Below the pieces are notes generated by a model. The model searched no databases. It saw nothing but the letters and a program-made list of their open reading frames with translations, and was not told the DNA's origin. A stretch of DNA of 63,273 bases from Thermoleophilaceae bacterium (GTDB lineage: Bacteria; Actinomycetota; Thermoleophilia; Solirubrobacterales; Thermoleophilaceae), in the NCBI GenBank assembly GCA_019683805.1, contig JADGHQ010000007.1:1-63273 (forward strand), given 5' to 3'. This document shows positions 1 to 3,728 of this stretch, one piece after another. Position numbers and translations under genes: made by a program. Position 1 is the first letter of the stretch. Every line of letters starts with the position of its first letter.

Positions 1-25
1 CGACCGCTCGAGCGTCGAGCGGTCG
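1..25. repeat. Perfect 11-bp inverted repeat
   Basis: Bases 1-11 and 15-25 are perfect reverse complements around a GCG centre. If the pstC frame is right, this lies inside its first codons. It could be a hairpin in the pst mRNA or a coincidence of arginine/serine codon use. Confidence 0.5.
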
Positions 26-54
26 CCGCGGAGCTGGATCGAACGGGCCTCCAT
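1..54 (-). CDS. Probable PstC phosphate permease, N-terminal fragment
   Basis: An ATG at 54 opens a frame of 18 codons that runs off the left edge of the window. It lies 8 nt downstream of the pstS stop on the same strand, the place where pstC, an inner-membrane permease of the phosphate ABC transporter, normally sits. The visible residues are hydrophilic and arginine-rich, as expected of a cytoplasmic N-terminus before the first membrane segment, but they are too few to identify the family. The call rests on position alone. There is only a weak ribosome binding site. Confidence 0.45.
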   Translation of the reverse strand, partial: MEARSIQLRGDRSTLERS

Positions 55-62
55 CCGTCAGC

Positions 63-1160
63 TCATCCCGCGAGCGGGCCGCCGTCGCACTGGAGCCCCT
101 GCACCTTCTCCTTCGCCTTCGCGAGCAGCGAGTCCGGCAGCTTCGCGTACGCAAGCTGCTCGAGCACCTGCTGCCCGTCGCCGGTCACGTAGTCGAGGAA
201 GCGGGCGAGCGCCGGGGCGTCGCCCTTCTTCAGCACGCCGGCCTTGCAGTCGTCCTGGTACACGATGAGGAACGTCTGCGAGGCGATCGGGTACGCCTTC
301 GGGTTCGGCGAGTTGACGATCGTGAAGCGCAAGTCGCCCGGCACCTTCACGCCCTCGCCGGCGGCCGTGGTCGACTCGAGCGACGGCGGCACGTAGCGGC
401 CGGAGCTGTTCTTCACGGCGGCGGTCGTGAAGTGGTTCTGCAGCGCGTACGCCTGCTCGACGTAACCGATCGAGCCCTCCGTCTGCTTCACGGCCGCGGC
501 CACGCCGTCGTTGCCCTTCGCGCCGGTGCCGGTCGGCCACTTCACGGTCTTGTCGGACCCGACCTTGCTCTTCCACTCGGGGCTCTCCTGCTGCAGGAAG
601 TCGGTGAAGCCCTTGGTCGTGCCGGACTCGTCGGAGCGGTGAACGACGGCGATGTCGCTCGCGGGGAGCTTCACGCCCGGGTTCGCCTTCGCGATCTCGG
701 GGTCGTCCCACCTGGTGACCTTGCCGAGGAAGATGTCGGCGATGGTCGGCCCGTCGAGCTTCAGTCCGGCGCCGACGCCCGGCACGTTGTAGGCGACCGT
801 GATCGCGCCGAACGCCACGGGAATGTGGACCGGGTCGCCCTTCTTGCGGGCGGCGGGGAGCTCGTCGTCCTTCATGGGCGGGTCGCTGCCCGCGAACGCG
901 ACCGTCCCCGCCGTGAGCTGCGCGATGCCCGCGCCCGAGCCCACCGGCTGGTAGTTCACGGTCACGCCCTGGTCCTTGAGCGTGCTCCCGAGCTGCTGGT
1001 AGATCGGCGCCGCGAACGTCGAGCCGGCCCCGTTCACCGTGCCGCCGCCGGAGCCGCCGCCGGTCGCAGCCGTGCCCTGGCCGTCGCCGCCGCCGCACGC
1101 CGCCGCGCCCAGCGCAAGGCCGGCGCACGCTACGGCTGCGAGCCACTTGCGTGACTTCAC
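63..1160 (-). CDS. pstS: PstS phosphate ABC transporter substrate-binding lipoprotein
   Basis: This 365-residue protein binds phosphate outside the membrane and delivers it to the PstCAB transporter. A GTG at 1160 is chosen because an AAGGAGG ribosome binding site precedes it by about 5 nt; the start is followed by Lys-Ser-Arg-Lys and a hydrophobic stretch ending at Cys22, a lipoprotein-type signal with a slightly loose lipobox (AAAC). Gly/Ser/Thr-rich linker residues 23-42 follow. Phosphate-binding segments of the PstS family are visible: GAGSTFAAPIY at 44-54, GSGAGI at 74-79, and RSDESGTTKGF at 175-185, which supplies the Arg/Asp/Ser/Gly/Thr ligands. It is divergent from a PhoB-type regulator, with a Pho-box-like repeat array between them, so phosphate starvation control is likely. 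Confidence 0.95.
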   Translation of the reverse strand: MKSRKWLAAVACAGLALGAAACGGGDGQGTAATGGGSGGGTVNGAGSTFAAPIYQQLGSTLKDQGVTVNYQPVGSGAGIAQLTAGTVAFAGSDPPMKDDELPAARKKGDPVHIPVAFGAITVAYNVPGVGAGLKLDGPTIADIFLGKVTRWDDPEIAKANPGVKLPASDIAVVHRSDESGTTKGFTDFLQQESPEWKSKVGSDKTVKWPTGTGAKGNDGVAAAVKQTEGSIGYVEQAYALQNHFTTAAVKNSSGRYVPPSLESTTAAGEGVKVPGDLRFTIVNSPNPKAYPIASQTFLIVYQDDCKAGVLKKGDAPALARFLDYVTGDGQQVLEQLAYAKLPDSLLAKAKEKVQGLQCDGGPLAG

Positions 1161-1220: not shown

Positions 1221-1275
1221 CTGTTACGGAGCTGTGGCCGCCGTGTGAAAAGGCTGTGAACGCCGTTTGGGCGAA
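1221..1275. promoter_or_regulatory. Pho-box-like array of five 11-bp direct repeats
   Basis: Five consecutive 11-bp units begin at 1221, 1232, 1243, 1254 and 1265. Each has T at position 2 and a (C/G)TGTGAA-like first half: CTGTTAC, CTGTGGC, GTGTGAA, CTGTGAA, GTTTGGG. Eleven-bp tandem spacing is the hallmark of PhoB/PhoP-family binding sites. The array fills the divergent region between pstS and the response regulator gene, and its last unit overlaps the regulator's -35 hexamer. Confidence 0.75.
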
Positions 1276-1295
1276 AGATCGGCGCCCGCTAGGCT
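1267..1295 (+). promoter_or_regulatory. Promoter of the PhoB-type regulator, leaderless
   Basis: TTGGGC at 1267-1272 and TAGGCT at 1290-1295 are separated by 17 bp. The -10 ends 8 nt before the ATG at 1304, so transcription should begin almost at the start codon. The -35 coincides with the last Pho-like repeat, the classical arrangement for activation by a PhoB-type protein. Confidence 0.65.
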
Positions 1296-1303
1296 CCACT
1301 CAG

Positions 1304-2104
1304 ATGGCGGAGCCGCTCACAGCCGTGAGCTCGTCGCCGCAGGCACAGCCAGGCCCGATCAAGCTCGCGATAGTCGACCGCGACAGCGGATTCGTCCGGG
1401 TCCTCACCAAGCGGGCCGAGGAGATGGGATGGCGCTACCGGGCGCTTTCCGCACCCGCGCGCCCGGAGGACCTCGTTGCGATGCGCGTCCACGCCCTCGT
1501 GGTGGACCTGGCGCTGCTGGGGGAGGACGCCTGGGAGTTCCTCGGGCGCGTCGCGGGCGAGCTGCCGGGGCTCGGCGTGATCGTCTGCACCGGACCCTCG
1601 ACCGTCGCCCAGCGGGTGCGCGGGCTGCGGCTCGGCGCCGACGACTGGATCACCAAGCCCTGCCACCCACAGGAGGTCGTGGCGCGCGTCGAGGCGGTGG
1701 TGCGCAGGCGCAGGCGCGCCGACGCCGCCTCGGGCGACGCGCCGCGCCGCGCCGGCGAGCTCGAGATCCGGCCGGACCAGTTCCAGGCCTTCGTCGGCGG
1801 CCAGTCGCTCGACCTCACGCGGCGCGAGTTCGAGCTGCTCGAGCTGCTCGCCCGCTCCGAGGGGCGGGTGCTCGAGCGCGAGGACATCTACCGTCACGTG
1901 TGGGGCTACACGATGGTGCGCGGCGACCGCTCGGTCGACGTGTTCGTGCGCAAGCTGCGCCAGAAGATCGAGCGCTTCTCGCCCGGCTGGACCTACATCC
2001 ACACCCACTTCGGCATCGGCTACCGCTTCGAGGCGGTCCCGCCGGAGCCGCAGGACTCGGCGCCGCCCCCGCGCGCGCCGGGCGAGCTGCCCCCGGCCGC
2101 ATGA
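1304..2104 (+). CDS. OmpR/PhoB-family response regulator
   Basis: This 266-residue DNA-binding regulator probably controls phosphate genes. The receiver domain (about 19-135) has the acidic pair Asp25/Asp27, phosphoacceptor Asp68 in LVVDL, Thr96 and Lys118 in ITKP. The winged-helix trans_reg_C domain (about 150-243) carries the typical LTRREFELLELLA, VDVFVRKLRQKIE and GIGYRF segments. Residues 1-18 and 246-266 are Pro/Ala/Ser-rich tails. ATG 1304 is chosen over upstream in-frame codons because a -10 hexamer sits 8 nt before it. No histidine kinase gene is next to it; the following gene is a PhoU-like protein overlapping by ATGA. PhoP/RegX3-type function is inferred from its position opposite pstS and the repeat array. 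Confidence 0.9.
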   Translation: MAEPLTAVSSSPQAQPGPIKLAIVDRDSGFVRVLTKRAEEMGWRYRALSAPARPEDLVAMRVHALVVDLALLGEDAWEFLGRVAGELPGLGVIVCTGPSTVAQRVRGLRLGADDWITKPCHPQEVVARVEAVVRRRRRADAASGDAPRRAGELEIRPDQFQAFVGGQSLDLTRREFELLELLARSEGRVLEREDIYRHVWGYTMVRGDRSVDVFVRKLRQKIERFSPGWTYIHTHFGIGYRFEAVPPEPQDSAPPPRAPGELPPAA

Positions 2105-2745
2105 TCTTCGGCCTGCGCAGCCGCGGCGCCGACCCGGTCCTCCTGGCGCTGCTCGAGGAGTCGGGGCGCAACGTCGAGCGGGCGAGCCTGCTGCTGCGCG
2201 ACCTGCTCGCCGACTTCCCGGACCGAGCGGAGCTCGCCCGCGAGCTGCTCGTGTGCGAGCAGGCGGGCGACCGCATCACCCACGACATCATCCACCGGCT
2301 CGGTCGCGGCGGGCCGCGCCGGCGCCTCGGGCAGGGCCGGCTGGCGAGCGGTGACGTCTACGACCTGGCGCGCGCGCTCGACGACATCGTCGACTTCGCC
2401 GAGGAGGCCGCCGACGCGCTCGGCGTCTACGGCGTCGAGGCGCCGATGGAGCAGGCCCAGCAGCAGGCCGGGGTGCTCGTCGAGGCGAGCCGCGAGGTCG
2501 GCCGCGCGCTTGCCACGCTGCCCGACGCGGAGGGGCTCGCGCACCACCTGATCGAGATCCACCGGCTCGAGAACGACGGCGACCGCATCATCCGCGACGC
2601 GATCGGGGCCCTCTTCCACAGCGGCACCGACCCGATGGTCGTGATCCGCTGGAAGGACATCCTCGGATCGCTCGAGCAGGCGATCGACTCGTGCGAGGAG
2701 GTCGCCCACCTGCTCGAGGGCATGAGCCTCCGACTGCACCGCTAG
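2101..2745 (+). CDS. PhoU-like DUF47 family protein
   Basis: This 214-residue all-helical protein belongs to the DUF47/PhoU-related family, which accompanies phosphate transporters and regulators. Visible family features are the opening LRSRGADPVLLALLEESGRN-like segment, acidic metal-binding patches ALDDIVDFAEEAAD (near residues 97-110) and EIHRLENDGDRIIRD (near 150-164), and the closing KDILGSLEQAIDSCEEVAHLLEG helix. Its ATG overlaps the regulator's TGA (ATGA), so the two are translationally coupled. DUF47 proteins are usually beside Pit permeases; here it is paired with the phosphate regulator, which suggests a signalling role. Confidence 0.88.
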   Translation: MIFGLRSRGADPVLLALLEESGRNVERASLLLRDLLADFPDRAELARELLVCEQAGDRITHDIIHRLGRGGPRRRLGQGRLASGDVYDLARALDDIVDFAEEAADALGVYGVEAPMEQAQQQAGVLVEASREVGRALATLPDAEGLAHHLIEIHRLENDGDRIIRDAIGALFHSGTDPMVVIRWKDILGSLEQAIDSCEEVAHLLEGMSLRLHR

Positions 2746-2766: not shown

Positions 2767-3528
2767 CTAAGCCGCGACCGGGACGCGACCGGGCGCGAGC
2801 ACGCCCCGGCGCACCAGGCGCTCGGGCCCCCGCGTCGTGAGGTGGCGGGCGCGGCCCGGGTCGACCCCCTCGGCGAGCATCGTCTCGCAGGCTCGCGTGA
2901 GCAGCGGCCTGCGCCCGCGCGCAAGCGAGTGCGCGTCCGAGGCGACCGCGGCCGCGAGCCCGCTGCGCACGAGCCGCAGCGAGGCGACCCGCGCGGCCGG
3001 GCCGTGGGCGCCGAGCAGCGAGCCGCCGTTCACCTGAAGCAGCGACCCGCGCGCGAGCTCCCGCCGCAGCCCGGGCGACCCGCCCGCAAGCAGGCCGGCG
3101 CTTCGCTCCGGATGCGCCAGCACGACGCCGAAGCCGCGGGCGCGCAGCTCGTCGGCGGCTGCATGCAGCGGCTCGGCGATGCCCTCGAACGGCGCCTCGA
3201 GCAGCAGCCAGCGGCGGTGCTCGGGGCCGACGGCGATCGTGTCGAGCTCGCGCTGGTCGAGCCGGCCGACCATGTCGTGTCCCAGCTCGGCGCCCGTCCG
3301 CACGGCGATGCCGATGCCCTCGCGGTCGATCCGCTCCTGGACCTCGCGGACGAGGCCGGGGAGCTGCGTCACCTCGGTGACGAAGTCGGCGCGCACGTGC
3401 GGGGTGGCGACGATCGTCGAGGTCCCGTCGGCGGCCGCGGCGCGCGCGAGCTCGACGGACTCCTCGATCGTGGCCGGGCCGTCGTCGAGGCCCGGCAGCA
3501 GGTGGAAATGTATCTCTGTTCTCGTCAT
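2767..3528 (-). CDS. PHP-domain phosphoesterase, CpsB/YwqE tyrosine phosphatase type
   Basis: This 253-residue metal-dependent phosphoesterase resembles CpsB/CapC/YwqE protein-tyrosine phosphatases, which dephosphorylate tyrosine kinases of capsule or exopolysaccharide synthesis. Metal-ligand motifs appear in family order: HFHLLPGLDDGP near the N-terminus, TPHV, GAELGHD, LAHPER and ASDAHS. A typical family would read HxHxLPGxDDG, and here the second position is Phe-His. No polysaccharide genes or tyrosine kinase lie nearby, so the substrate is unknown. It converges with the DUF47 gene, 21 nt apart. There is no clear ribosome binding site before ATG 3528. Confidence 0.85.
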   Translation of the reverse strand: MTRTEIHFHLLPGLDDGPATIEESVELARAAAADGTSTIVATPHVRADFVTEVTQLPGLVREVQERIDREGIGIAVRTGAELGHDMVGRLDQRELDTIAVGPEHRRWLLLEAPFEGIAEPLHAAADELRARGFGVVLAHPERSAGLLAGGSPGLRRELARGSLLQVNGGSLLGAHGPAARVASLRLVRSGLAAAVASDAHSLARGRRPLLTRACETMLAEGVDPGRARHLTTRGPERLVRRGVLAPGRVPVAA

Positions 3529-3646
3529 CGCCCTCGACGTTCGCGCAGCGGGCGCGCGCCGATGTGAAAAAGCGGTGACTCGAGCGGGCAGGCCACGCTG
3601 CTCAGCGGGCGCAACCCCCGCCGCGTTCGCTACCGTTGTGCCCTCA

Positions 3647-3720
<74 letters not shown>

Positions 3721-3728
3721 CTGGACCT

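What the first reader, a model, noticed from the sequence alone, without database searches (positions are those of the whole stretch)
1221..1295. Five-unit 11-bp Pho-type repeat array overlapping the regulator's own -35
Units at 1221, 1232, 1243, 1254 and 1265 keep exact 11-bp spacing with a TGTGAA-like core. The last unit covers the -35 (TTGGGC), 17 bp from the -10 (TAGGCT) of a leaderless PhoB-type regulator gene; pstS diverges on the other side. This is a compact, apparently autoregulated phosphate switch in a lineage where Pho boxes are little described.
Basis: partly seen in the sequence, partly recalled or inferred. Interest (0 to 1): 0.5.

Follow-up and report, generated by a model that had tools for sequence, protein, structure and literature searches.

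The report
Shared phosphate-control DNA switch
Between a phosphate-uptake gene and its likely regulator sits a row of four regulator-binding repeats that related soil bacteria have kept in fixed spacing and direction, which points to an ordinary phosphate-starvation switch run by an unusual regulator that has no sensor kinase gene beside it.

Summary
The repeats are real. Four 11-bp units (1221-1264) score 23 of 24, reached by 0 of 5000 shuffles. Units 3-4 are the only exact TGTGAA-N5-TGTGAM match in the 2.56-Mb genome. The fifth unit and the "-35" are not supported: 0 of 24 family members keep unit 5.

The two-unit core lies upstream of the regulator in 112 of 121 loci, 11 bp apart. Three gene orders share it. 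It points TGTGAA-forward to the regulator, but TTCACA-forward to pstS. Its distance to the regulator's -10 is mostly 27-30 or 38-42 bp, never 31-37. So this is a Pho box, close to the C. glutamicum PhoR consensus, probably autoregulatory.

New here: the regulator belongs to an order-wide family with almost never a kinase gene beside it and a receiver that lacks the second acidic metal residue in 107 of 121. In 63 of 103 loci, not in the window, a receiver-less paralogue sits just upstream of pstS.

Binding, phosphate response and sign of regulation are inferred. Verdict: new variant of a known kind.

The parts
1221..1264 (+). Operator: four 11-bp direct-repeat units (cores TGTTAC 1222-1227, TGTGGC 1233-1238, TGTGAA 1244-1249, TGTGAA 1255-1260), TGTGAA-forward toward the regulator and TTCACA-forward toward pstS
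   Evidence: units 3-4 conserved upstream of the regulator in 112 of 121 loci, units 1-2 in 19 and 16 of 24 family f1 loci
1265..1275 (+).
   Evidence: 3 of 6 core matches; 0 of 24 f1 loci keep it; no -35 signal
1290..1295 (+). -10 element TAGGCT of the regulator promoter, 30 bp after the last TGTGA
   Evidence: family -10 consensus TAnACT
1244..1249 (-). TTCACA on the minus strand, -35-like element of pstS, same bases as unit 3
   Evidence: sequence; TAAC follows after exactly 17 bp in 24 of 25 f1/f4 and 24 of 37 f2 arrays, 0 at 16 or 18
1221..1226 (-). TAACAG on the minus strand, -10-like element of pstS, same bases as unit 1 (CAGGCT, 3 bp further on, is an alternative -10)
   Evidence: inferred, no transcription start mapped
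63..1160 (-). pstS, phosphate-binding lipoprotein (GTG start)
   Evidence: TIGR00975 355 bits, cut-off 205
1..54 (-). first codons of pstC, cut by the contig end; pstC-pstA-pstB-phoU continue on contig C75 (L191)
1304..2104 (+). OmpR/PhoB-type orphan response regulator with a degenerate receiver (second acidic residue replaced by R)
   Evidence: Pfam Response_reg and Trans_reg_C; receiver columns
2101..2745 (+). DUF47 (PhoU-like) gene, start overlaps the regulator's stop
   Evidence: PF01865 50.3 bits
3563..3579 (+). second box TGTGAAAAAGCGGTGAC, TTCACA-forward toward the CpsB-type gene
   Evidence: second best hit of the genome; score 23.3; TTCACA-forward boxes upstream of cpsB in relatives
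2767..3528 (-). CpsB/CapC-family phosphatase gene, candidate further target
   Evidence: PF19567 114.8 bits

Best explanation
This is a shared, bidirectional Pho-type operator. Four head-to-tail 11-bp half-sites between pstS and the gene of an orphan OmpR/PhoB-type regulator are bound by that regulator (inferred), with units 3 and 4 as the core and units 2 and 1 as weaker extensions. Toward pstS the units read TTCACA-forward and cover the promoter: unit 3 doubles as the -35-like TTCACA and unit 1 contains the -10-like TAACAG, so bound regulator would contact RNA polymerase at the -35 as PhoB does (inferred). Toward the regulator's own gene the same units read TGTGAA-forward and stand upstream of the -10 at a helically fixed distance (30 bp here, one turn more in many relatives), which suits activation from one DNA face, that is positive autoregulation (inferred). 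Shown: the sequence, its conservation, the orientation rule, the phasing and the gene linkage. Not shown: binding, induction by low phosphate, the sign of regulation, and how an apparently kinase-less regulator senses phosphate.
For: Conservation: box upstream of the regulator at 0, 1 or 2 mismatches in 42, 52 and 18 of 121 loci; 0 of 605 shuffles reach 1 mismatch. The 120 relatives fetched were chosen by me, mostly best matches first, from the 151 genomes searched; the rest were not fetched. Linkage: the regulator is tied to pst genes in three gene orders: divergent pstSCAB-phoU (f1, f4), downstream of phoU (f2), ahead of pstS (f3). Orientation: pstS boxes in f2 (37 of 41 pstS rows; the other 4 score 0.3 or less) and f3 (38 of 41 above 12) are all TTCACA-forward; boxes at the regulator (112 of 121) and at f2 DUF47 (26 of 29) are all TGTGAA-forward. 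Phasing: 31 of 110 regulator promoters at 27-30 bp, 74 at 38-42, none at 31-37, 5 elsewhere; vector length 0.85 against a maximum of 0.22 in 300 shuffles. DUF47: 16 at 27-30, 4 at 38-40, 2 at 49-50, 1 at 2, of 23 with a -10 score of 3 or more among 26. Dissection: units 1-2 are kept where a pst-side gene is divergent (19 and 16 of 24) and lost where it is not (f2 1 and 0 of 45; f3 2 and 2 of 41). Known match: C. glutamicum PhoR binds best CCTGTGAAaatCCTGTGAA and phoRS is positively autoregulated (PMC3353115 passages).
Against: No binding, expression or phosphate data exist here. Nine of 121 loci lack the box within 200 nt at 2 mismatches or fewer: L084, L098, L100, L114, L130, L152, L155, L168, L178. 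The helical rule is an in-silico distance to a predicted -10, and both -10 and box were found by scores trained on these sequences. In E. coli a site on the antisense strand at the phoB -10 represses phoB (PMC6194859 passages), so reversed orientation could mean repression; here, however, the box does not overlap the -10. Which orientation corresponds to E. coli TGTCA is undecided: both readings match 4 of 5 bases. Leaderless actinobacterial promoters often need no -35 (recalled), so a missing -35 is weak evidence for activation. In 13 of the f1 loci the gene facing the array is a small DNA-binding gene, not pstS itself. Boxes persist near pst genes in four genomes whose regulator match was weak.
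Confidence: 0.75

Rival explanations
1. The regulator represses its own gene through the TGTGAA-forward box while activating pstS through the same box, giving negative feedback.
For: Opposite orientation at the regulator and DUF47 versus pstS in every lineage examined. E. coli phoB is repressed at high PhoB level through an antisense-strand site (PMC6194859 passages). C. glutamicum PhoR may repress pitA (PMC3353115 passages).
Against: The box ends 27-30 or 38-42 bp before the -10 and does not cover it; helical phasing is not expected of simple steric blocking; autoregulation of phoRS in C. glutamicum is positive.
Confidence: 0.2
2. The box is bound mainly by another OmpR-type regulator, for example the canonical RegX3-like pair on contig C64 (L193), and the linked orphan is a modifier or competitor.
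For: That pair has a complete-looking receiver and its own kinase, while the linked regulator has a degenerate receiver. Boxes remain near pst genes in four genomes with only weak regulator matches.
Against: No box scoring 6 or more lies in the loci holding the 8 HisKA kinases of this genome (L192-L198). The box sits with this regulator's gene in 112 of 121 loci.
Confidence: 0.1
3. The operator serves nitrogen control (GlnR-like), since GTTAC units at 11 bp and a degenerate receiver also recall GlnR.
For: GlnR is an atypical OmpR-type orphan that dimerises without phosphorylation (PMC12632262 passages). Its site pattern is recalled, not looked up.
Against: The linked genes are pstSCAB, phoU and DUF47 in 3 gene orders; the core is TGTGAA, the PhoR motif.
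Confidence: 0.03

Closest known systems
PhoR box of Corynebacterium glutamicum (PhoS-PhoR)
   Same: Two TGTGAA cores 11 bp apart, at pstSCAB and at the regulator's own gene, positive autoregulation reported (PMC3353115 passages)
   Different: PhoR is encoded with its kinase PhoS; here no kinase gene lies beside the regulator, units 1 and 3 overlap the likely pstS promoter, and the regulator is not shown to be phosphorylated
PHO box of Streptomyces PhoP
   Same: 11-nt direct repeat units upstream of pstS (PMC7866108 passages); consensus GTTCACC (PMC4415409 passages). A S. lividans primer for this region, given as forward, reads GTTCACC toward pstS (PMC2605767 passages), as TTCACA does here
   Different: Different core, canonical PhoR-PhoP pair; no array shared with the regulator gene was seen in the passages read
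Pho box of E. coli PhoB
   Same: Tandem 11-bp units of a PhoB-type regulator, one of them at the regulator's own gene (PMC4415409 and PMC6194859 passages)
   Different: TGTCA tract; canonical PhoR kinase; this regulator scores far below the PhoB family cut-off
Atypical orphan OmpR regulators such as GlnR
   Same: Orphan with an incomplete receiver (PMC12632262 passages)
   Different: Linked to phosphate uptake; keeps D, T and K positions in most members

Membership tests
PHO box (PhoB/PhoP/PhoR-type operator) | two or more direct repeats at 11-bp period | tested here: met
   period 11 holds in 94 of 121 loci at 1 mismatch or fewer; other periods at most 5 of 121
PHO box (PhoB/PhoP/PhoR-type operator) | located at pst and other phosphate genes | tested here: met
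   pstS, DUF47 and the regulator itself
PHO box (PhoB/PhoP/PhoR-type operator) | bound by the phosphate response regulator and needed for low-phosphate induction | not testable with these tools
   needs footprinting and expression data
PhoB (TIGR02154, NF053854) | score over the family's curated cut-off | tested here: not met
   101.6 bits against 296.2; 116.3 against 270
OmpR/PhoB-type response regulators | receiver plus Trans_reg_C winged helix | tested here: met
   37.0 and 82.9 bits, cut-offs 30.2 and 26.2
Canonical two-component system | cognate histidine kinase encoded beside the regulator | tested here: not met
   kinase hit within 5 kb in 1 of 121 loci, some with short flanks; in 12 genomes the listed HisKA hits are over 15 kb away in 11 (its list is cut)
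Canonical two-component system | regulator activated by phosphorylation | not testable with these tools
   needs biochemistry
Pseudo-receiver (atypical) regulators | one or more of the five active-site residues missing | tested here: met
   second acidic residue non-acidic in 107 of 121 (R in the window); D68 in 120, K118 in 121, T96 as T or S in 107 of 121

The most novel reading that the evidence does not exclude
In the order Solirubrobacterales phosphate uptake is run by a kinase-independent Pho circuit: an orphan pseudo-receiver regulator, often with a receiver-less paralogue made of its DNA-binding domain alone and encoded at the head of the pst operon. Both read one operator whose direction decides the promoter geometry (TTCACA-forward over the -35 at pstS, TGTGAA-forward at phased distances at the regulator and DUF47). 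Phosphate status would be passed on by PhoU or DUF47 proteins or by regulator dosage, not by a phosphorelay.
Probability: 0.3. Interest if true: 0.72.

Novelty: new variant of a known kind. Interest (0 to 1): 0.5.

Why it matters
Pho control is a textbook two-component system. Here a whole order ties its phosphate transporter to a regulator with an incomplete receiver and, as a rule, no kinase gene beside it, which makes "how does it sense phosphate?" a direct, testable question. The orientation rule and the one-helical-turn steps between box and -10 give a clean natural data set on how OmpR-type activators can be placed at promoters. The box also lets the phosphate regulon of a poorly studied soil lineage be read from sequence.

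Tried and rejected
Unit 5 as a repeat, and TTGGGC as a conserved -35: rejected.

A terminator between pstS and pstC: the hairpin-like sequence at 1-25 lies inside pstC's first codons, so rejected.

A Pit transporter behind DUF47: in G134 the two minus-strand frames left of DUF47 gave no Pfam hit. In the window genome PHO4 lies on another contig with no box scoring above 0.8 in its locus.

Loss of regulator and box together: in four genomes whose best regulator match was weak (G031, G046, G136, G110) boxes still lie near pst genes, so co-loss is not seen. G031 holds a gene whose DNA-binding part is 53% identical, just upstream of pstS; the others may be incomplete assemblies. This counts against an exclusive tie of box and regulator.

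A -10 on the pstS side by the regulator's -10 matrix: only 1 of 38 f2 boxes gave a score above 6. The pstS -10 is therefore a weaker TAACAG or CAGRMT type, and its choice is open.

The palindromic GCAAATTTGC-like stretch upstream of the box in several f2 and f3 loci was seen and not tested.

No structure prediction was run.

Full report
What is there. The window is a whole contig (G000:C7). Named near relatives of its regulator are Solirubrobacterales, class Thermoleophilia, so I place it there; the genome itself is unnamed. pstS (63-1160, minus) and an OmpR/PhoB-type regulator (1304-2104, plus) diverge from 143 bp of DNA. The first codons of pstC follow pstS to the contig end. Contig C75 begins, read the same way, with a truncated pstC, then pstA, pstB and phoU (PhoU), so the operon is most likely pstSCAB-phoU with an assembly break in pstC.

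The array. Units 1 to 4 match the core TGT(G/T)A(A/C) at 6, 5, 6 and 6 of 6 positions, and unit 5 at 3 of 6. Four in-register units this good occur in 0 of 5000 shuffles of the same DNA. Units 3-4 are the genome's only exact hit to TGTGAAN5TGTGAM and the site at 3563 its only single-mismatch hit. A matrix built from the relatives finds three places scoring 8 or more in the 63-kb window: 1243 (27.9), 3562 (23.3) and 54273 (10.4); the window's own site at 1243 is among the 112 that trained it.

Conservation. I searched 151 genomes and fetched the regulator's neighbourhood from 120 of them; with the window that is 121 loci. Box mismatches in the 320 nt upstream were 0 in 42, 1 in 52, 2 in 18, 3 in 2, 4 in 5 and 5 in 2 loci. 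Shuffles (605) never went below 2, and periods other than 11 bp gave 5 of 121 or fewer at 1 mismatch or better. In one search, which looked at both strands, every box of 2 mismatches or fewer lay on the regulator's strand. In one search (plus strand, 200 nt) 112 of 121 had one.

Three gene orders, one box. By tblastn with window and genome queries, f1 and f4 have pstSCAB-phoU divergent from the regulator, f2 has it upstream on the same strand, and f3 has the regulator ahead of pstS (a few loci show no pst genes or a different order). In all three the regulator keeps its box. pstS has its own box in f2 (37 of 41 rows scoring 16 or more) and in f3 (38 of 41 above 12), always TTCACA-forward to pstS. 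DUF47 in f2 has a box in 26 of 29 cases, always TGTGAA-forward; 15 DUF47 genes in f1, f3 and f4 have none. The window's shared array therefore carries two arrangements that are separate in f2 and f3.

What each unit is for. Units 3 and 4 are kept in 24 of 24 f1 loci scored (L069, where the neighbouring genes lie further off, was left out), unit 1 in 19, unit 2 in 16 and unit 5 in none, while f2 and f3 regulator boxes lack units 1 and 2. On the pst side, TAAC starts exactly 17 bp after the proximal TTCACA in 24 of 25 f1/f4 and 24 of 37 f2 arrays, 0 at 16 or 18. In f3 the same four positions are T, A, A and C in 33, 34, 35 and 34 of 39. This reads as a -35/-10 pair built into the repeats, but a CAGRMT hexamer 3 bp further is also fairly conserved and no start site is mapped.

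Geometry at the regulator. A -10 of the type TAnACT lies 27-30 bp (31 of 110) or 38-42 bp (74 of 110) after the box, with none at 31-37 and 5 elsewhere; DUF47 promoters give 27-30 (16 of 23), 38-40 (4), 49-50 (2) and 2 (1). These are steps of one helical turn. The window is at 30 bp. There is no -35 signal. I take this as activation from one face of the DNA; that is inference.

The regulator. It passes the Pfam cut-offs for receiver and DNA-binding domain but no NCBIfam family among the 25 shown of 48, PhoB included. In 121 aligned orthologues the first acidic residue is D in all. The second, which binds the metal directly (PMC12632262 passages), is acidic in only 14 and R in the window; the phospho-acceptor D is kept in 120 and K in 121. 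A kinase hit lies within 5 kb in 1 of 121 loci. In the window genome 7 of 8 HisKA genes have another OmpR-type regulator beside them. Matches at E of 1e-60 or better occur in 50 of 199 genomes of the class, all labelled own, same family or same order. Three same-order genomes are listed without one, and 129 further genomes without a match are not listed by name.

A receiver-less paralogue. In 63 of 103 loci with a PstS hit (f1 13 of 24, f2 30 of 37, f3 20 of 41, f4 0 of 1) an OmpR-type DNA-binding-domain gene stands just upstream of pstS on its strand. Most copies have a Pho box on either side, and in many f2 loci and some f1 loci the pstS box overlaps its last codons. Three of these proteins, tested in Pfam, have Trans_reg_C alone (106-121 aa). 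In some loci the frame runs further upstream, so the start is not settled in each. Against the regulator DNA-binding domains of the window genome, all three match the window's regulator best (46-58% identity). The window genome itself shows no such separate gene: its 8 hits are the regulator under study and weaker ones at the places of the 7 kinase-paired regulators. So its regulator-pstS junction is the compact form.

Fourth target. Upstream of cpsB genes in f1, 13 of 15 score 6.5 or more and all 15 best hits are TTCACA-forward (a sixteenth row, G010, is an artefact of a cut contig and was dropped). Random 360-nt f1 segments, true boxes included, reach 6.5 in 7.3%. The window's 3563 site is the strongest of these.

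Against what is known. C. glutamicum PhoR prefers CCTGTGAAaatCCTGTGAA and autoregulates positively (PMC3353115, passages only). Streptomyces pstS has GTTCACC-type repeats (PMC7866108, PMC4415409 and PMC2605767, passages only). So the operator is a new member of a known kind; the kinase-less pseudo-receiver regulator and the small paralogue make the system a variant. Searches for a description in this lineage (listings seen) showed none in the rows listed; subscription journals are mostly not held.

Noticed in passing
window 3562-3579: Second Pho-type box (score 23.3) between the CpsB-type gene and a tRNA-Asp gene (3647-3721); similar TTCACA-forward boxes lie upstream of cpsB in family f1.
   Followed up: partly
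L086:6382-6744, L088:10374-10706, L140:9001-9318: Receiver-less OmpR-type DNA-binding-domain proteins of 106-121 aa just upstream of pstS, mostly flanked by Pho boxes; 63 of 103 loci.
   Followed up: partly
window 1-63 and G000:C75 right end (L191): pst operon split by the assembly inside pstC; C75 starts (read in operon direction) with low-complexity G-rich sequence before pstC.
   Followed up: partly
G000:C64, L193:3267-5560: Canonical RegX3-like regulator and kinase pair followed by an HtrA-like reading frame, with no Pho box in the locus; the names are from sequence look, not from a family search.
   Followed up: no
upstream of the box in several f2 and f3 loci, e.g. L108, L104, L154: Recurrent GCAAATTGCGG-like, partly palindromic sequence about 10-20 bp before the box; may be a second regulator's site.
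   Followed up: no
G000:C65:4852-4871 (L200): Near-palindromic TTGTAACAACTTTGTGAC site scoring 15.5 and 13.0 on the two strands.
   Followed up: no
window 54273: Weak box-like hit (10.4), minus strand.
   Followed up: no
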